DNA from: Ramlibacter paludis | GTDB lineage: Bacteria > Pseudomonadota > Gammaproteobacteria > Burkholderiales > Burkholderiaceae_C | Direction: 5' to 3' | Assembly: GCF_022012305.1 (NCBI RefSeq) | Contig: NZ_JAKLTM010000001.1 | Span: 1,178,001 to 1,242,000 of the forward strand | Length of the DNA: 64,000 bases | Shown: piece after piece, positions 17,442-23,158 of the stretch | Layout of the letters: each line of letters opens with the position of its first letter | Position numbering within the stretch: the first letter of the stretch is position 1 | Position numbers and translations under genes: made by a program | The notes under the pieces: generated by a model | Database searches by the model: none | What the model was told of the DNA's origin: nothing | Seen by the model: only the letters and a program-made list of their open reading frames with translations

Positions 17442-17530
17442 GGCGTTTGGCTACTTTGGGTGGCAGGCAGCCATCACGCTGCTACTGCGCCGGTGGCTCC
17501 GTTCAGGCCAATGCGCTGTCGGTGGATGGA

Positions 17531-18118
17531 TCATCGGCGTGGCGAAGACGGGCGGCAGCAGCGGGTGCTTGAAGCGGCCACAGCGACCGTCATACGGCAC
17601 TCCCCGGGTTTTGGCGCGCGACGGCCTCTCTGGCCGTAAACAATTTTTAACTGCCAGCCGCGGCGCTGCGTGAAGTTGTTGATGTCTTGGGCAAGTGGCG
17701 TGAAGGTGTCTATCAGCCGTCCGCACTCTGCGCCGTCGTACTTCTTGCGGGTGCGCACAAGTTCCTCTGGCACGAAGGCAGCGGGGCCAGCAACAGATTA
17801 ACATCCGTGCTCTCAACATCCCTCGCAACGGCAGTGAAATGCGCAAGCACGTTCCTGTCAGCAGATGCCTCCTGCATGCGTTTGACGAGCCTCTTCCACT
17901 CCGCCATCTGCTTGGGATTTAGAACCACCTTTGCAGTGGCCTCGACCACGCGAAGCTTCGCGCCGAAGGGAATCCTGCGCGTAGTAGATCGCCCCCACTC
18001 GCTTCAGGTCCGCGCCCTTTTCGAAGAGACCAAAGAAGAACGTGAACAGGGCCGCCTCCACGTGCTGCCATACGAGGAGTGCCATCGCATAGGAACGGAA
18101 GAACTCGTTCGGCTCCAT
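17531..18118 (-). pseudogene. HEPN-like protein gene broken by two frameshifts (third gene of the CBASS operon)
   Basis: A start at ATG 18118, six bases after the CD-NTase stop, gives MEPNEFFRSYAMALLVWQH and on to IYYAQDS, where the frame slips at a G-run near 17968. The next frame continues sensibly (GAKLRVVEATAKVVLNPKQM, then RMQEASADRNVLAHFTAV) to about 17780, where a second, opposite slip returns to the first frame (VPEELVRTRKKYDGAE, then DINNFTQRRG). The two indels cancel, so an intact ancestor would be about 195 residues. RNVLAH fits the R-x4-H signature of HEPN ribonuclease or antitoxin domains in an all-helical protein. Loss of function or two sequencing errors are both possible. Confidence 0.7.
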
Positions 18119-18123
18119 TCAGC

Positions 18124-19017
18124 CTACCAGTCGTTCCAGAGATCAATGATGGCGTTCTTAAAAGCGGCATAGTTCGCGGTCGACCAACTGGTCGGATACC
18201 CGTCGCGCAGCAGGTAATACTGTTCGTTGGCTGTTATCCAGTTCGCGTTGTCCGCAGTGCCATGCATCCACTGCAGAACCTTCAGATACGACGCGCTGTA
18301 ACTCGTACCGAAACAATCAAGAGGTGCGTTGTACAACAGGCCCTCAATAAAGTACGAGGGCGCGACACCGTCTTGGATGACCCCGTCGTTCACCAGCTTG
18401 GCGCGGGCATTCTTGAACACTCGCACCATCGGCTTCAGCCATTCTCCGGACGCTTGATGTCGCGCGGTCATGTTGTCGCCATGCTGCTTAGGGTAGTTTG
18501 CGATGCGCGTGCCCGCTTTGTCGTAAAAGCAGATGCCTTCGACGTAGTTCTGGTCATTGACGCCGTTGAACCTGAAGTAGCGGCGGAATTGGATTGCGGC
18601 GATCACATCCGCAGGTCGCCTTGCCGTTGACGGAGGCACGTAGATGGCCTTGTTTCCGGCGTTCACCTGGTCGCCGTACTCGTTCCTCAGGACTGTTAGT
18701 ACATCTCTCTTGAAGTTCACGTGCGTGTACGTGGCGTCATTGTGAGCCGCGCGCCACGCGTTCTTTTCGGCCTCACTAAGCTCGGTCAGATCACTTTGAA
18801 AGCAGTCGCTGAGCGCAATGACGATGTCAACGTCGCTTTCGCCAATGATGTTGGTGTGATTGCCGTAGGAGCCTTGCAGGAACACGGAATAATTCTTGCC
18901 GAGATAGGGCGCTACAGAATCTTTCAGAGTCTCCTTGACCAGATTGTACGTTTGGCTAGAGCCAGCGATGCTGCCGATCTTCGACCATGTCTTCAGTTGA
19001 TCTTCTGGGATCGCCAT
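18124..19017 (-). CDS. CD-NTase (CBASS cyclic-oligonucleotide synthase)
   Basis: A 297-residue nucleotidyltransferase of the cGAS/DncV-like superfamily. The active site reads LQGSYGNHTNIIGESDVDIVI: Gly49-Ser50, Asp62 and Asp64, with the third acid probably Asp137 in RRPADVIAAIQ. The rest matches the OAS-like helical lobe (GEWLKPMVRVFKNARAKL, PSYFIEGLLYNAP). On phage infection such enzymes make a cyclic di- or trinucleotide that switches on the neighbouring effector. The gene follows the patatin gene by 10 bases with its own GGAGGGG ribosome-binding site. The exact product nucleotide and clade cannot be read by eye. Confidence 0.9.
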   Translation of the reverse strand: MAIPEDQLKTWSKIGSIAGSSQTYNLVKETLKDSVAPYLGKNYSVFLQGSYGNHTNIIGESDVDIVIALSDCFQSDLTELSEAEKNAWRAAHNDATYTHVNFKRDVLTVLRNEYGDQVNAGNKAIYVPPSTARRPADVIAAIQFRRYFRFNGVNDQNYVEGICFYDKAGTRIANYPKQHGDNMTARHQASGEWLKPMVRVFKNARAKLVNDGVIQDGVAPSYFIEGLLYNAPLDCFGTSYSASYLKVLQWMHGTADNANWITANEQYYLLRDGYPTSWSTANYAAFKNAIIDLWNDW

Positions 19018-19027
19018 TGCCCCTCCT

Positions 19028-19978
19028 TCAGCTCAGCATCTGTGAAAGCACCGTCTCGCGGGACGCGAAGGAGTCCCTGCCTCGCTGACGAATCAAGTCC
19101 AGCTTGGCCAAGTCACTTTCGAGAAAGTCAGTTGCAAGTGCGGGCTCATCGAACATGTCACTGATCCGAACAGTCTGCACGTCGCTGAACAATAGCGAGC
19201 GCAATTGCTCCATCGACTTTGTGTTGACCTCGAGAATTTTTGGAGTGAGCTCGATGGTGGGGATGACCAGCCCGATGGCCCAGACGTGCGGCTTGGCTCG
19301 TTTCGCCGGGAACTCTCCGACACCCACGTTGACGACCCGGAGGTTTCGCCTGTCGCTGCCTATCGCGTGAGCGGCGTCCGCGATCGCATAAAGCGTGGGG
19401 TTGTTCGCGCAGAACCCCCCGTCGAACAGTTCTATCTCCTCGCCCTGGTCCGTGACGACCGTTGTGCGATTGAAAAACGGGTACGCGGAGCAGGACGCCT
19501 GCACGGCCTTGGCTAACGAAACTCCGAAGCCAGGGCGGAAGGAGCCTTTTCGTCCGAAAGCCTGCGCAGGGTCGCCTTTAAAGATCATTGGCAGTTCGGT
19601 CATCCACTTAGTGGCGACTATGCCAACGCGCGTCTTCATGTCAGCGAACGTGTACTTTCCGAATACTTCATCGGCAAGCGCCGCGAGGGCTGCCGACTTC
19701 TTGTCTCGGGTCCACGCGCCCATGATTGCCGGGACGTGCTGTTTGTACAGAGTGTGTATCTGGTCAACTGACTGGCCCAGTGCGAGCAAAGTACCAATGA
19801 TGGACCCTGTACTGGTGCCGTAAATCAGGTCGAATCGATCGCACAATCTACATCCGACCATGGCTTCCAGTTCATGGAGGACGCCCAGGGTGTAGAAGCC
19901 TTTGGAGCCACCACCATCTAACGTAAGGACCCGAAGACCTCCATCCGAATTGGGCACATTTTCTCCAGATTTCGCCAT
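19028..19978 (-). CDS. capV: patatin-like phospholipase, CBASS effector (CapV type)
   Basis: A 316-residue patatin-fold lipase. It has the oxyanion loop DGGGSKG (21-27), nucleophile elbow GTSTG with Ser56, and catalytic Asp186 in LFDGGFCANNPTLYA, the full Ser-Asp dyad of active patatins. In type I CBASS the CapV phospholipase sits directly before the CD-NTase gene, is activated by its cyclic nucleotide and degrades the inner membrane, killing the infected cell; the order and spacing here match. It starts at ATG 19978 and is the first gene of the operon. The lower G+C than the flanking genes is consistent with acquisition by transfer. Confidence 0.92.
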   Translation of the reverse strand: MAKSGENVPNSDGGLRVLTLDGGGSKGFYTLGVLHELEAMVGCRLCDRFDLIYGTSTGSIIGTLLALGQSVDQIHTLYKQHVPAIMGAWTRDKKSAALAALADEVFGKYTFADMKTRVGIVATKWMTELPMIFKGDPAQAFGRKGSFRPGFGVSLAKAVQASCSAYPFFNRTTVVTDQGEEIELFDGGFCANNPTLYAIADAAHAIGSDRRNLRVVNVGVGEFPAKRAKPHVWAIGLVIPTIELTPKILEVNTKSMEQLRSLLFSDVQTVRISDMFDEPALATDFLESDLAKLDLIRQRGRDSFASRETVLSQMLS

Positions 19979-20160
19979 CGTGTGGCATAGGCTAAAGCAA
20001 AAACGCGCGTATGCCTAACGTCGCAAACTGCGCGCTTGACTAGCGATTGGCGGCTCCGCTTGAGAATTACCGCGGTGGTGCGGTGCTGTGCCGTGCGATA
20101 CCCGGCGAACTATAGGCCACGCATCATCGAAGAGGTCTGAGCGCCGCAATCTCCACAGAA

Positions 20161-20181
20161 TTCTCAAAGCTCAATTGAGAA
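20161..20181. promoter_or_regulatory. TTCTCAA-N7-TTGAGAA inverted repeat before the CBASS operon
   Basis: Perfect 7-base arms (20161-20167 and 20175-20181) around a 7-base centre, the right half also forming the palindrome CTCAATTGAG. A third TTGAGAA copy occurs at 20060-20066. The site lies 27 bases past the stop of the DAC-domain gene and about 180 bases before the CBASS start. It could be an operator or a weak terminator; there is no U-tract on the minus strand. Confidence 0.45.
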
Positions 20182-20207
20182 GGTGGCCTGCAGGCTCCAT
20201 GGAAAAC

Positions 20208-21938
20208 TCAAGGCAGCAAATAACTTGGGTCCATGTTCTCGTCCGGGACAAAGGGATCGAACTCTATGTATACCTGGCCTTGCTGCTGCACTTGTGACTC
20301 AATTCGCGCGAGCGCCGCATTGGCGCGATCACACTGTGCCAAGTCCAGGTAGAAGCGACGTTCGTCCAACCAATTCCTACTCTCGTGATAATCGTCGATT
20401 GTCGCGCGTTCCAGTGTCTGAAGTTGCCTCTCCACCGCACTTCGGCTGATCCGAAGGCGCAACGGGGGAATGATGTCCATTGACCCATCGTCCGACACAA
20501 CAATAGCAAGTCTTTTGGGAGTTGGTGAGCTTATGTACCGGACGCCAGAGTTGTACCTCGACCCACGGGAAGGGGTACACAGTGAGTTGGCGTTGCCGTC
20601 CAAAATGACGCCAACCGCAAAGCAATTCCCCCATGGATCAATCAGAATCGATCCGTCGATGCCGCTGACGCAATGAAACAAAGCTGTCGTAAGGGGCACG
20701 GTCTCTATGGCGGTACCTTGTCCTAGAAGCCGCTCGGCCTCAAAGGCTGCGTCTTCGGCAATGACGATCATGCTGCCCCGGCCGATTCGCGCCGCTTCAA
20801 GTAGGAGCTTCCACAGGTGCGAATGGGCTTCAACTGCAGCGGGAAACATTCGCTGAAGGTTGTCGAAGAACAATGCCTTGTCAACCAAGTCTTTCGGAAC
20901 CCTTGGGTTGCCGAAGTCGCTTCTTATCAGACCCCGTCCTGCAAACCGCAACTCCCAATGAAACTGATCCAGGAAGTGCACCGCAAACGTTACCTGGACG
21001 CCCGGCAAGCCACCCGCCTTCGGTGTCCCTAAACCATAAATCTTCTCTGCATCGGCAACCAGGAATAGATCCGAAGTTGTCATCTGCAGCAGCTTTCTCG
21101 CCCATCGAAGCTCTCGTAGGTCAACTGGAGACCGTAGTCGGACAGCGTAATCAACACTGTCTTGAGTCGGATCGACAAGAAGTAGTACTCCGCTGCTCGC
21201 CTTCCGTTCATATGACAATGCAGAAAGCGTGTTGATGCTCTCGAATAAGGTACCGAAGAACGGCGTACTGCAGACCGCATTTGCAATTGTCTGCATGAAA
21301 TCATGCGCAGCCAATCTCGCCGCCTCTGGCCCGCTACGTTGGTACCTGAAGGAAGAAGCCGGCTCCTCTTTTGCGAGTTCCTCGCTGGCGTCATCGAGCG
21401 CCTGTTGCATGGCGGCTTCGATCAGACTACGCGGGCCACGACGGAACCAGCGATCGTGTCCGTCGAATTGCTTGAACGGAGGAAAGTCCAAGAAAATGAC
21501 TTGTGGCAGCTCGACCACCGGGACTACGTAAAAGGCGCCCACTGAGCGTGCGGGACCCGCAAACGAGCGAACTTGGTTTGTCCCGTCATGAGCGGTTAAG
21601 GCACTTTGAATGGTATGTTGAACCAACTGACAGGCTAGCAGCTCACTCCCTCGCCCGTTGTCGTCGTCTACTTTAGAGTTCTTATTGAGCGCTTGGGTAG
21701 CCGCAACAGCTTCTAACGTCAAGCGAGCGTCAGTGAACATTTCATTCGGCCGACCACTCATTTCCGGCTCGACGAGTATCGACCGCCGAGCCCCGGGGCC
21801 TCTACTTATCCCCACCAAAAATGCCTCAACGCGGTGCTCAATTCCCAGCGCAAAAAGCACGTCCTCTGCCCGTCTTTCCAAGGCGTTCCGGAACACCTCC
21901 TGTGCGGCCCAAATAGATGGCTTCACGAGATCGGGCAT
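20208..21938 (-). CDS. protein with C-terminal diadenylate-cyclase (DisA_N-like) domain
   Basis: A 576-residue soluble protein. The first 380 or so residues are not recognised and probably form a sensor. From 388 the DAC fold appears: GSMIVIAEDAAFEAERLL, then SGIDGSILIDPWGNCFAVGVIL with Asp428-Gly429-Ser430 in place of the canonical DGA, then RGSRYNSGVRYIS (Arg461-Tyr462-Asn463 where classical enzymes have Arg-His-Arg), then RLAIVVSDDG (SEE-G in the norm). About 80 helical residues follow. c-di-AMP cyclases use these motifs to bind metal and ATP; the RHR change may alter or abolish synthesis. It is co-oriented with, and 229 bases upstream of, the CBASS operon. Confidence 0.72.
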   Translation of the reverse strand: MPDLVKPSIWAAQEVFRNALERRAEDVLFALGIEHRVEAFLVGISRGPGARRSILVEPEMSGRPNEMFTDARLTLEAVAATQALNKNSKVDDDNGRGSELLACQLVQHTIQSALTAHDGTNQVRSFAGPARSVGAFYVVPVVELPQVIFLDFPPFKQFDGHDRWFRRGPRSLIEAAMQQALDDASEELAKEEPASSFRYQRSGPEAARLAAHDFMQTIANAVCSTPFFGTLFESINTLSALSYERKASSGVLLLVDPTQDSVDYAVRLRSPVDLRELRWARKLLQMTTSDLFLVADAEKIYGLGTPKAGGLPGVQVTFAVHFLDQFHWELRFAGRGLIRSDFGNPRVPKDLVDKALFFDNLQRMFPAAVEAHSHLWKLLLEAARIGRGSMIVIAEDAAFEAERLLGQGTAIETVPLTTALFHCVSGIDGSILIDPWGNCFAVGVILDGNANSLCTPSRGSRYNSGVRYISSPTPKRLAIVVSDDGSMDIIPPLRLRISRSAVERQLQTLERATIDDYHESRNWLDERRFYLDLAQCDRANAALARIESQVQQQGQVYIEFDPFVPDENMDPSYLLP

Positions 21939-22355
21939 ATGGAAAGCTCAGCTAGCTGCCGCCGAAGGTCCTCTACGGCGGAGAGCAAGTCTACTTCGCA
22001 AAGTCCTTTTCAAGCAAATTTGTTAGGCGCCGGCCGGCTTAACGCAAGTCTGATGTGATTGCTTAATAAAACTGAAATTCGCGACCATCGGAGGCGACTT
22101 AAATGGACCTTGGGAGCCTTACCCGAAGGAGCACTCTAATGCAGCACGTACAGCGCTCTCTGATCCTCCGGTGTCCATGACGACAAGAGCCAGTCGTCGC
22201 TAAGCGCAGGCGCGAATTGTCTGGCACCGGGTGCTCTCACGCCTCACGCAGCGAGGGCACCTTCACCTTAGACCTCTCAAGTAAGCAGAACTTTGTCCGC
22301 GATCCGAGGGATTGCGCTCGTGGTCTGACTACGCCGACCACAGAAGACTTCGCAG
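21939..22355. other. A/T-rich intergenic stretch, no gene seen
   Basis: About 417 bases upstream of the DAC-domain gene. The only structures noticed are a hairpin at 22022-22043 (GTTAGGC and GCTTAAC arms around a CCGGCCG core) and a 6-bp stem CCGCCG/CGGCGG (complementary strand) just before the DAC start. No frame has both a ribosome-binding site and protein-like composition. The DAC promoter should lie here. Confidence 0.45.
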
Positions 22356-22769
22356 CTAAGGATAGACTCGAATCATCCTCGGTCGGCGCCCGGCGATGTG
22401 CAGACGGAGCCACAAGAAGTGCCCGACGCCCCAGTCGAAGTGGTCTTCCTCGGCGAAAGTAAGGCGATGTGTGGAGTGCGAGTCCAGTTTCACGTCTTCT
22501 GAGTCGAAGTCGGCACTATGTATTTCGTTCCGCCTCATGAATGGCCAGCGACTGGTCCCATCTAGGAGCTCCCAGTGAGCGAGGATGAAAGGCCGCGTAC
22601 CGAGGTTCCTGATCTGGATCTGGTTCCCGATCTCTTTACTGCCACTGAACTTGTAGCTTATGTCTACCTGGAATCGGTCTCGCCACAGCTCCCAAAGCTT
22701 TACGGCTGCCAAGAGCGTTGAGAGACCTGCGCCCCACATGGCAAGGAAGGAGGAATCGATGGGTATCAC
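22356..22769 (-). CDS. small membrane-anchored protein of unknown function
   Basis: A 137-residue protein with a GTG start at 22769. One N-terminal transmembrane helix (about 8-29, FLAMWGAGLSTLLAAVKLWELW) is followed by a roughly 105-residue beta-sandwich-like domain with VDISYKFSGSKEIGNQIQIRNLGTRPFILAHWELLDG, where the NLGTRPF pattern resembles immunoglobulin-like folds. Similar one-helix proteins occur in accessory DNA of many bacteria without assigned function. It is on the same strand as the DAC and CBASS genes but separated by an A/T-rich gap. The start is uncertain. Confidence 0.6.
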   Translation of the reverse strand: MIPIDSSFLAMWGAGLSTLLAAVKLWELWRDRFQVDISYKFSGSKEIGNQIQIRNLGTRPFILAHWELLDGTSRWPFMRRNEIHSADFDSEDVKLDSHSTHRLTFAEEDHFDWGVGHFLWLRLHIAGRRPRMIRVYP

Positions 22770-23158
22770 GACCCGAGAGCATACCGGGCTAGATGATCAG
22801 CACTAGCACCCGGACCGCGGGCCCCCCGAGGTGGACGAGGAAGGCCTTGGCACCTCGAACGCATTGACCGTTGGACGTCTGCCTTCGATCCCTCGCTCGC
22901 GTCGTGCTATTGACGTCGGGGTGCTCAATGACTGCACTAGAGCCTAGTCTTTGAACTCGGCGCCCATCGACGACCGACCGCCATCGCTGCAAAGCAGTCG
23001 TTCTTGCCGCCCGCCGGGACCAGTAGCCAAAGGACGTTCCCCCCCACTCACGACCGAGCAAAAGTCCGCTCCCGGCCCGGCGCACAGAGTCAACTTCCTA
23101 CAAGCTCATCCTGGTTTCGATTCTTAGAATCTTTGTTTGCAATCAGAAAGGAATGCGC
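22770..23158. other. intergenic stretch at the right end of the island
   Basis: About 390 bases. A 98-residue minus-strand frame (22789-23085) is Arg/Ser/Gly-rich, has no ribosome-binding site and is not taken as a gene. The base composition moves from island-like to genome-like here. A palindrome at 23119-23131 lies near the next gene. No tRNA or integrase remnant is seen. Confidence 0.45.
23119..23131. promoter_or_regulatory. GATTCT-T-AGAATC palindrome upstream of DJ-1 family gene
   Basis: A perfect 6-base inverted repeat with a single central T, 27 bases before the likely start at 23159. The size and position suit a repressor operator overlapping the promoter or leader. The regulator is unknown. 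Confidence 0.4.

What the first reader, a model, noticed from the sequence alone, without database searches (positions are those of the whole stretch)
20208..21938. Divergent diadenylate-cyclase-like protein beside CBASS
A 576-residue protein ends in a DAC-type fold whose DGA motif reads DGS and RHR reads RYN. The first 380 residues form an unrecognised domain. It is co-oriented with the CBASS operon, 229 bases upstream. A second nucleotide-signalling enzyme or a degenerate nucleotide sensor feeding into the CD-NTase/lipase pair would be a new arrangement. The adjacency is seen; the functional link is inference.
Basis: partly seen in the sequence, partly recalled or inferred. Interest (0 to 1): 0.8.

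Follow-up and report, generated by a model that had tools for sequence, protein, structure and literature searches.

The report
DAC-fold partner of a CBASS operon
A bacterial gene next to an anti-phage alarm system belongs to an already reported three-gene defence system (DS-2) that pairs two different nucleotide-signal enzymes; relatives of the gene also occur beside an alarm effector with no other signal enzyme found nearby, which raises the testable idea that it can raise the alarm alone.

Summary
The 576-aa ORF is real, co-oriented, 229 bp upstream of a patatin and a CD-NTase. It is not new in kind: all three genes exceed NCBI's DS-2 cut-offs, and DS-2 was reported to protect E. coli, with defence lost when either of two predicted catalytic DAC residues was mutated (PMC13092281). 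The DAC fold is predicted (CdaA 6huw: Z 13.2, rmsd 2.7 over 119). DGS and RYN are not decay: D428, G429, R461, S482 and D484 are invariant in 77 aligned members. The N-terminus is Pfam DACNG + DACNH; DACNH itself resembles a second DAC fold. The CBASS half looks like CdnE/CapE (cUMP-AMP). Of the 80 relatives kept (of 170), 37 lie within 5 kb of CBASS parts: 17 with patatin and CD-NTase, 13 with Cap15 and CD-NTase, 4 with Cap15 and no CD-NTase found, 3 other. The DAC stays while effector and predicted CD-NTase product change. Best reading: an active second cyclase that licenses CdnE-CapE; product and target unknown. New member of a known kind; the Cap15-only pairs are the novel lead.

The parts
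20208..21938 (-). DS2_3-family protein, 576 aa: DACNG + DACNH + DAC-fold domain + helical C-terminal tail
   Evidence: ORF; NF053872 638.2 bits, residues 7-573; only one match in its genome
21294..21914 (-). DACNG domain (residues 9-215), putative sensor; weak roadblock/GAF-like resemblance
   Evidence: PF21752 E 2.1e-30; best Z 6.3 and 5.7, MglB first, then IclR and LuxR-type domains among others, below the level that can be trusted
20904..21248 (-). DACNH region (residues 231-345); predicted structure resembles a second DAC fold with unrecognisable sequence
   Evidence: PF21750 E 3.9e-24 over 231-332; model of residues 1-345, pLDDT 88.3; the first 7 of 50 rows are DACs (2fb5 counted as one from recall), Z 7.4-9.2, next row Z 5.7; no sequence-profile similarity to the DAC domain
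20463..20882 (-). DAC-fold domain (residues 353-492)
   Evidence: Z 13.3, rmsd 2.5 over 134 to 2fb5; Z 13.2 to CdaM 8ofj and CdaA 6huw; Foldseek best E 1.6e-6, DisA 9y4s
20649..20657 (-). DGS (428-430), counterpart of the DGA motif
   Evidence: D428 and G429 invariant in 77 rows; profile aligns with HDGA of 2fb5 at a weak score, E 0.06
20550..20567 (-). RGSRYN (458-463), counterpart of the GTRHR motif
   Evidence: R458, G459 and R461 invariant, N463 nearly so; aligns with LGTRHR of 2fb5
20487..20495 (-). SDD (482-484), counterpart of the SEE of 2fb5
   Evidence: S482 and D484 invariant; aligns with SEE of 2fb5
19028..19978 (-). CapE-like patatin phospholipase (316 aa), CBASS effector
   Evidence: NF053870 467.3 bits, cut-off 400; E 6.1e-113 to PDB 9iom, 'cUMP-AMP-activated phospholipase'
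18124..19017 (-). CdnE-type CD-NTase (297 aa), predicted cUMP-AMP synthase
   Evidence: NF053871 433.9 bits, cut-off 350; E 7.9e-51 to 6e0k; GSY, D62, D64, D137 and lid-1 Asn N174 invariant in the 9 rows of A4; no (R/Q)xW motif
17500..22900 (.). low-GC island holding the system (about 0.55-0.58 G+C against 0.61-0.74 in the flanking windows)
   Evidence: NF053872 found in 1 of 399 family genomes, the own one

Best explanation
The ORF is the third subunit of a DS-2 type CBASS. Its C-terminal DAC-fold domain is an active dinucleotide cyclase, probably ATP-using, held inactive until the N-terminal DACNG/DACNH module detects something about infection. Its product licenses or switches on the CdnE-type CD-NTase. 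CdnE then makes cUMP-AMP, which activates the CapE-like phospholipase, damages the membrane and aborts infection. SHOWN HERE: family membership, predicted DAC fold, invariant motif positions, conserved linkage, CdnE and CapE type. REPORTED for the E. coli relative: phage defence, lost when either of two predicted catalytic DAC residues is mutated. INFERRED: that this copy is active, its product, the trigger, and that the DAC acts at the CD-NTase rather than at the effector.
For: All three genes score over NCBI's DS-2 cut-offs. DS-2 genetics. DAC fold. D428, G429, D447, R461, S482 and D484 invariant in 77 rows. In a starred clade of 33 rows that includes the window protein, 30 lie near CBASS parts. 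The DAC stays while the effector changes (patatin in 17 and Cap15 in 19 of the 80 kept loci, 2 loci having both) and while the CD-NTase's predicted product changes: 21 of 22 patatin-linked, DAC-bearing CdnE lack (R/Q)xW, and 11 of 11 readable Cap15-linked ones have it (rule from passages of PMC10442399). So the DAC tracks the signalling layer, not one effector. The DS-2 phospholipase of E. coli AR_0128 is identical over its 320 aa to PDB 9iom, whose recorded name gives cUMP-AMP as activator. The window's genome shows no PF02457 DAC and no CdAMP_rec receptor, so a c-di-AMP-like signal would meet no known host pathway of those two kinds.
Against: No activity was measured, here or in the passages read. 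Patatin+CdnE pairs exist without a DAC on the same plasmid: of 17 records with a close patatin relative, 14 carry CdnE and have no DAC hit, 2 have all three, 1 has the patatin alone; a DAC elsewhere in those genomes was not sought. Of the 80 kept DAC relatives 43 have no CBASS parts found within 5 kb by my models, and 17 of the 80 have under 2 kb of flank on one side. The window copy is the most diverged of 20 relative to its CD-NTase (identity ratio 0.779) and departs at 22 positions that are at least 90% conserved in 32 clade members. The window's gene order (DAC first on the same strand, 229 bp gap) is matched by none of the 21 patatin loci listed.
Confidence: 0.6

Rival explanations
1. Inhibitory or guard logic, as in Panoptes: the DAC constantly makes a dinucleotide that keeps an effector off or acts as bait, and phage sponges or nucleases that remove it release the effector.
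For: mCpol, a diadenylate cyclase, restrains a Cap15-like 2TM-beta effector in Panoptes, which often lies beside CBASS (passages of PMC12657218 and PMC12657230). An mCpol/2TM-beta pair lies near DS-2 in E. coli AR_0128. DAC+Cap15 pairs with no CD-NTase found nearby exist.
Against: Catalytic DAC mutants of DS-2 lose defence, and no toxicity is mentioned in the passages read, whereas Panoptes effectors are toxic without an active cyclase. In a tree of 28 Cap15/OptE proteins the 3 OptE form their own clade; Cap15 of L037, L046 and L027 group with Cap15 beside CD-NTases. The place of L070's Cap15 is unsure there (long branch, weak join).
Confidence: 0.15
2. The DAC product acts at the effector, as co-activator of the phospholipase or as the direct activator of Cap15, in parallel with the CD-NTase.
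For: Cap15 (Pfam: cyclic dinucleotide receptor domain) sits beside a DAC with no CD-NTase found within 5 kb in 4 of 80 loci; L089 has a TIR-STING gene about 120 bp upstream of a DAC.
Against: The patatin pair occurs without a DAC; 9iom is named for cUMP-AMP activation. Genomes of 3 of the 4 Cap15-only loci hold another CD-NTase-like (SMODS) gene elsewhere that could act in trans.
Confidence: 0.15
3. The DAC fold is catalytically dead and serves as a nucleotide sensor or scaffold.
For: DGA reads DGS, RHR reads RYN, no PF02457 hit in the window copy.
Against: The same positions are fixed in 77 aligned members, 47 of which still hit PF02457 at E<=0.01. DS-2 loses defence on mutation of predicted catalytic residues, though that would also follow if the residues only bind a ligand.
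Confidence: 0.12
4. Chance neighbour: the DAC is a separate gene with its own job.
For: 43 of 80 kept relatives have no CBASS parts found nearby, some in shared neighbourhoods (for instance Pedobacter L082, L086, L093, L094); gap of 229 bp in the window.
Against: Linkage in several orders and orientations, 30 of 33 rows of the window's clade near CBASS parts, DS-2 genetics.
Confidence: 0.04

Closest known systems
DS-2 (DefensePredictor discovered system 2; NCBIfam NF053870, NF053871, NF053872)
   Same: Same three genes: phospholipase, CD-NTase, DAC. All three window proteins exceed NCBI's cut-offs.
   Different: The DAC lies first on the same strand with a 229 bp gap; E. coli AR_0128 and most listed relatives have patatin, CD-NTase, DAC. 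The window DAC is about 40% identical to the E. coli one and only just over the cut-off.
CdnE/CapE type CBASS (cUMP-AMP)
   Same: Patatin and CD-NTase match 9iom and 6e0k; lid-1 Asn kept, no (R/Q)xW.
   Different: Carries the additional DAC.
Diadenylate cyclases DisA, CdaA, CdaM (PF02457)
   Same: DAC fold, Z 11.8-13.4 in the first 40 rows; motif positions correspond.
   Different: DGS (mostly DGT in the patatin-linked group) for DGA, RxN for RHR, SxD for SEE; DACNG and DACNH in front; activity unknown.
Panoptes (mCpol/OptS + OptE)
   Same: A diadenylate cyclase with a 2TM-beta effector, often beside CBASS; parallel to the DAC+Cap15 pairs.
   Different: Cyclase of another fold (polymerase palm, like Cas10 and GGDEF); the 3 OptE at hand form a clade apart from the DAC-linked Cap15; no mCpol match in the window's genome.

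Membership tests
NCBIfam DS2_3_antiphage (NF053872) | whole-protein score at or over 630 bits, full length | tested here: met
   638.2 bits, residues 7-573, profile 3-576 of 576; 637.9 in the six-frame search: close to the cut-off
DS-2 system | phospholipase, CD-NTase and DAC encoded together | tested here: met
   all three models over cut-off within 18124-21938
DS-2 system | protects against phage and needs the DAC's predicted catalytic residues | not testable with these tools
   reported for E. coli DS-2; not tested for this copy
Diadenylate cyclase DAC (PF02457) | Pfam score over cut-off | tested here: not met
   no hit for the window protein at E<=1; 47 of 77 aligned members hit at E<=0.01
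Diadenylate cyclase DAC (PF02457) | DAC fold | tested here: met
   predicted model, pLDDT 87.1; Z 13.2 to CdaA 6huw, rmsd 2.7 over 119 residues
Diadenylate cyclase DAC (PF02457) | literal DGA and RHR motifs (motif names recalled; both seen in the 2fb5 sequence) | tested here: not met
   DGS and RYN; R-x-N is family-wide. Hence filed as DS2_3 with a DAC fold, not as a PF02457 member
Diadenylate cyclase DAC (PF02457) | makes c-di-AMP from ATP | not testable with these tools
   needs biochemistry
CBASS | CD-NTase with GS...D-x-D and a third Asp, next to an effector | tested here: met
CBASS type I | no Cap2/Cap3 or other type II-IV partners | not tested
   no model for these was run on the window; none is named among the seven ORFs scanned
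Panoptes | mCpol domain synthase | tested here: not met
   no PF18182 match at E<=0.001 in the window's genome

The most novel reading that the evidence does not exclude
DS2_3-type DACs are stand-alone alarm synthases that can replace a CD-NTase. In 4 of 80 kept loci (Methylomonas L027, Psychrobacter L037, Acinetobacter rudis L046, Amycolatopsis L070) a DAC sits directly beside a Cap15 effector with no CD-NTase found within 5 kb. In L037 and L046 it takes the tail-to-tail position that a CD-NTase holds beside two related plasmid Cap15 genes (L129, L130), and in the L037 genome none of three CD-NTase models finds a match. DS-2 would then be a two-cyclase hybrid. In addition the catalytic DAC carries a DAC-fold-like domain (DACNH) in cis, so the enzyme could work as an internal pseudo-dimer with an asymmetric active site and a product other than c-di-AMP.
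Probability: 0.35. Interest if true: 0.85.

Novelty: new member of a known kind. Interest (0 to 1): 0.52.

Why it matters
CBASS is normally described as one cyclase and one effector. DS-2 needs two cyclases of unrelated folds, and the papers I could read do not say what the second one makes or acts on. This locus is a diverged natural variant outside E. coli whose CBASS half is close to a solved, cUMP-AMP-activated phospholipase. The comparison makes the question testable: the DAC persists across two effector classes and two predicted CD-NTase products, and appears with Cap15 alone. If a DAC drives Cap15 by itself, DAC-made dinucleotides would join the immune alarm signals.

Tried and rejected
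Degenerate-enzyme reading: weakened by invariance of the motif positions in 77 aligned members.

A tempting residue signature: Thr/Ser at position 430 in 30 of 41 CBASS-linked rows against 2 of 42 unlinked ones. The tree leaves only 7 independent pairs, of which about 3 differ, and no significance (median p 0.625); not used as evidence.

Panoptes-like reading of the DAC+Cap15 pairs: the 3 OptE proteins at hand form a separate clade from the DAC-linked Cap15; only 3 were available, and joins with the long branches L070, L053, L028_c28 and L045 are unsure.

DACNG fold: best Z 6.3 and 5.7, too low to trust; roadblock/GAF-like is only a hint. DACNH against DAC by sequence profile: no similarity (probability 4%), so the second-DAC reading rests on predicted structure alone.

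The first scan of genome contigs with the single protein found nothing; alignment A2 then gave 170 relatives, of which 80 were kept. These are the closest to the query and so biased towards the window's clade. A profile of A1 had no match in the PDB at E<=10; A3 had 2fb5 at E 0.06. No relative in 50,697 phage records at E<=1e-3; 4 loci in viral contigs, not analysed. The mCpol survey of 398 genomes gave 8 genomes with matches inside ORFs of 478-643 aa, not examined further, and no new OptE was taken from it. Flank genes were sought in 21 congeners (11 and 7 with a match), but the empty site was not compared. A mistyped Pfam accession (WhiA_N) was searched and means nothing here. PHROGs had no match for the ORF.

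Rows dropped: L002, L086 and L091 (match split in two pieces) from the 87-row DAC alignment; L008, L009, L010 and L030 (short) from the 83-row tree; L030, L086, L091, L099 and all plasmid and E. coli rows from A3.

Literature: a search for the DACNx names gave one unrelated paper, and Galperin 2023 is not held. A DAC+Cap15 pair without CD-NTase was not seen in print: 8 papers listed; one, PMC10442399, holds both terms, and its passages mention DACs only as general background; 6 listed; 15 of 737 listed. Galperin 2023 may hold it.

Full report
WHAT IS THERE. The window holds an intact 576-aa ORF on the minus strand, 21938..20208, followed after 229 bp by a 316-aa patatin (19978..19028) and a 297-aa CD-NTase (19017..18124). 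The stretch from about 17.5 to 22.9 kb has 0.55-0.58 G+C, against 0.61-0.74 in the flanking windows. The NF053872 family is found in 1 of 399 genomes sampled from the same family, the own one; Pfam DACNG is in 2 of 398 genomes sampled from the phylum, the own one included. This looks like an acquired defence island; the empty site was not examined.

FAMILY. All three proteins exceed the cut-offs of NCBIfam models of one system: NF053872 DS2_3 (638.2 bits, cut-off 630), NF053870 DS2_1 (467.3, cut-off 400) and NF053871 DS2_2 (433.9, cut-off 350). The source is DefensePredictor (DeWeirdt, Mahoney and Laub, Science 2026, PMC13092281; I read the abstract, sections 5, 7 and 15 and passages); that the NCBI models stem from it is my inference from the shared name and gene content. 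There DS-2 is a phospholipase, a cGAS and a DAC; it was tested on a low-copy plasmid in E. coli MG1655; two predicted catalytic DAC residues were mutated and in each case defence was eliminated; 15 of 30 DAC homologues lay beside a CBASS; and the authors suggest a CBASS with two cyclase genes.

DOMAINS AND FOLD. Pfam finds DACNG (9-215) and DACNH (231-332), 'probable sensor domains', but not DAC. All 77 members of alignment A3 (the window and 76 relatives) hit DACNG and DACNH, and 47 hit PF02457 at E<=0.01. AlphaFold2 on A3 gave pLDDT 87.1, pTM 0.79. Residues 353-492 match DAC structures: CdaM 8ofj and CdaA 6huw Z 13.2 (rmsd 2.7 over 120 and 119), and 2fb5 Z 13.3 (rmsd 2.5 over 134), which is deposited as a hypothetical membrane spanning protein and counted as a DAC from recall. 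The first 40 of the 50 rows shown are DACs, then Z drops to 6.3; Foldseek agrees (DisA, E 1.6e-6). A separate model of residues 1-345 (pLDDT 88.3, pTM 0.88), which lacks the catalytic DAC, also finds DACs first: 2fb5 Z 9.2 (rmsd 7.0 over 166), MsDisA Z 8.9 (3.8 over 107), CdaA 6hvm Z 8.2 (3.6 over 110); the first seven rows are DACs, most of them aligned over residues 222-345, and the next row has Z 5.7. So DACNH may be a second DAC-fold domain. Sequence profiles do not show it, and four of the seven Z values lie under 8, where common arrangements occur. DACs work as dimers with a shared active site (recalled), so an internal pseudo-dimer is a natural guess, untested.

MOTIFS. A profile of the family aligns IDGA with HDGA, RGARYN with LGTRHR and SeD with SEE of 2fb5, at a weak score (E 0.06). 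In the 77 rows D428, G429, D447, G448, R458, G459, R461, S482 and D484 are invariant and N463 nearly so. RYN is therefore the family's own signature, and DGS a variant of DGA: Thr or Ser stands there in 30 of 41 CBASS-linked rows and 2 of 42 others, which may reflect descent alone (independent pairs, median p 0.625). The window copy is the most diverged of 20 relative to its CD-NTase and departs at 22 clade-conserved positions, none of them inside the three motifs.

THE CBASS HALF. The patatin matches PDB 9iom, 'cUMP-AMP-activated phospholipase', at E 6.1e-113; the E. coli AR_0128 DS-2 patatin is identical to it over 320 aa. The CD-NTase matches 6e0k, a CdnE (RmCdnE, recalled), at E 7.9e-51. 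By the rule in PMC10442399 (passages read), lid-1 Asn selects uracil at the acceptor and an (R/Q)xW motif selects a pyrimidine donor. The window enzyme keeps the Asn and lacks the motif, so cUMP-AMP is predicted.

SURVEY. A search of contigs of 84,980 species gave 170 relatives, of which the best 80 were kept. By HMMs made here for patatin, CdnE and Cap15, within 5 kb of the DAC, 17 of 80 have patatin and CD-NTase (two of them with a Cap15 as well), 13 have Cap15 and CD-NTase, and 4 have Cap15 and no CD-NTase; 3 more have other CBASS parts by weak matches and clustering (L045, L053, L089), and 43 have none found. Other CBASS gene types would be missed, and 17 of the 80 have under 2 kb of flank on one side. 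Cap15 was confirmed by Pfam PF18153 in the 6 of 6 candidates sent (L070, L027, L037, L046, L029, L097), and by PADLOC '2TM' effector models in the 4 sent. Of 22 patatin-linked CdnE with a DAC, 21 lack (R/Q)xW (L054 has QQW), as do 7 of 7 without a DAC; of 12 Cap15-linked CdnE, 11 have it and one is masked there; the thirteenth locus, L020, has a CD-NTase of another subfamily and was not in that list. The tree of 83 DACs puts the window in a starred clade of 33 rows, 30 of them near CBASS parts, with patatin and Cap15 loci intermixed. In E. coli, 18 of 5426 genomes hold the DAC gene, several records being near-copies with the same coordinates, and 18 have at least 80% of the stretch from upstream of the patatin to the DAC. 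Against obligate coupling: of 17 plasmids with a close patatin relative, 14 carry CdnE but no DAC hit, 2 carry all three, and one (Ancylobacter) has neither.

DAC WITH AN EFFECTOR AND NO CD-NTASE. In L027 Cap15 precedes the DAC by 5 bp, in L070 it follows by 31 bp, and in L037 and L046 the two are tail to tail. Cap15 of L037 and L046 falls in one starred clade with Cap15 of two Acinetobacter plasmids (L129, L130), whose tail-to-tail partner is a CD-NTase-like protein of 367-370 aa; the Cap15 of L027 joins that of L029, a locus with both CD-NTase and DAC. Whole-genome searches found no CdnE-like or PDLC00772-like gene in the L027, L037 or L046 genomes, while the two controls of each search were found; L070's genome has one weak partial match. 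A SMODS model, however, finds another CD-NTase elsewhere in the L027, L046 and L070 genomes, on contigs of other lengths than those of my loci, in stretches with no Cap15, patatin or DAC match, so action in trans is open for these three. L037's genome has no match to any of the three models; the SMODS model barely sees CdnE (E 0.069 for L029), and a gap in that assembly is not excluded. L089 adds a TIR-STING gene upstream of a DAC, with a CBASS operon on the other strand nearby.

HOW IT MOST LIKELY WORKS. The DAC persists while the effector and the predicted CD-NTase product change, so it most likely acts at the level of signal making or triggering: infection activates the DAC through its N-terminal module, its dinucleotide licenses CdnE, cUMP-AMP then fires CapE. 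An effector-level role and an inhibitory, Panoptes-like role remain possible. Loss of defence in DAC mutants of DS-2 argues against the latter for DS-2, but does not distinguish the former.

VERDICT. Its novelty claim is superseded by DS-2, its sensor alternative is disfavoured, and its main inference was right. What is left to discover is the DAC's product and target, and whether DAC+Cap15 pairs are a system of their own.

Noticed in passing
window 17451-18118, minus strand: A broken ORF overlaps the 3' end of the CD-NTase gene; its pieces lie in more than one frame, and the two pieces searched match nothing in the fetched loci except the own genome.
   Followed up: partly
L028 12547-13011 (-) and L053 6075-6518 (+): A 147-154 aa protein with HDGF and, further on, RGSRYR (L053) or TGAR (L028), weak PF02457 hit in L053 (E 0.009) and none in L028, adjacent to a Cap15-like protein in both: possibly a minimal stand-alone DAC with its own effector.
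   Followed up: partly
L019 21011-21982 (-): A Panoptes-like pair (mCpol and a Cap15-family protein) lies near DS-2, a type II-like CBASS and Hachiman in E. coli AR_0128; L020 also has an mCpol pair near its DAC.
   Followed up: partly
L089 3598-6429: TIR-STING (CAP12/PCTIR_TIR + prok_STING) about 120 bp upstream of a DAC on the same strand.
   Followed up: partly
L052 2017-3255; L064 6446-6937; L085 and L092: Other genes beside DACs without CBASS parts found: a SIR2-like protein, an unassigned 163-aa protein, and proteins that look like restriction or ATPase genes by eye.
   Followed up: no
L082, L086, L093, L094, L098: In Pedobacter and a sphingobacterial MAG the DAC lies in a shared neighbourhood without CBASS parts found, which suggests a non-defence role for part of the family.
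   Followed up: no
L010 3836-4624 (-): A gene annotated 'nucleotidyltransferase' lies divergent from the shorter DAC relative on a Priestia plasmid; it was not among the CdnE hits.
   Followed up: no
L012-L018 (plasmids): Patatin+CdnE pairs without a DAC in the stretch, some next to DUF4145 proteins or a metallophosphoesterase.
   Followed up: partly
L125 2328-4052: A DAC relative (41% identity, residues 3-574) on a contig of the viral collection.
   Followed up: no
window 22356-22769, minus strand: A 137-aa ORF inside the low-GC island, upstream of the DAC, with no Pfam or PHROG match.
   Followed up: no
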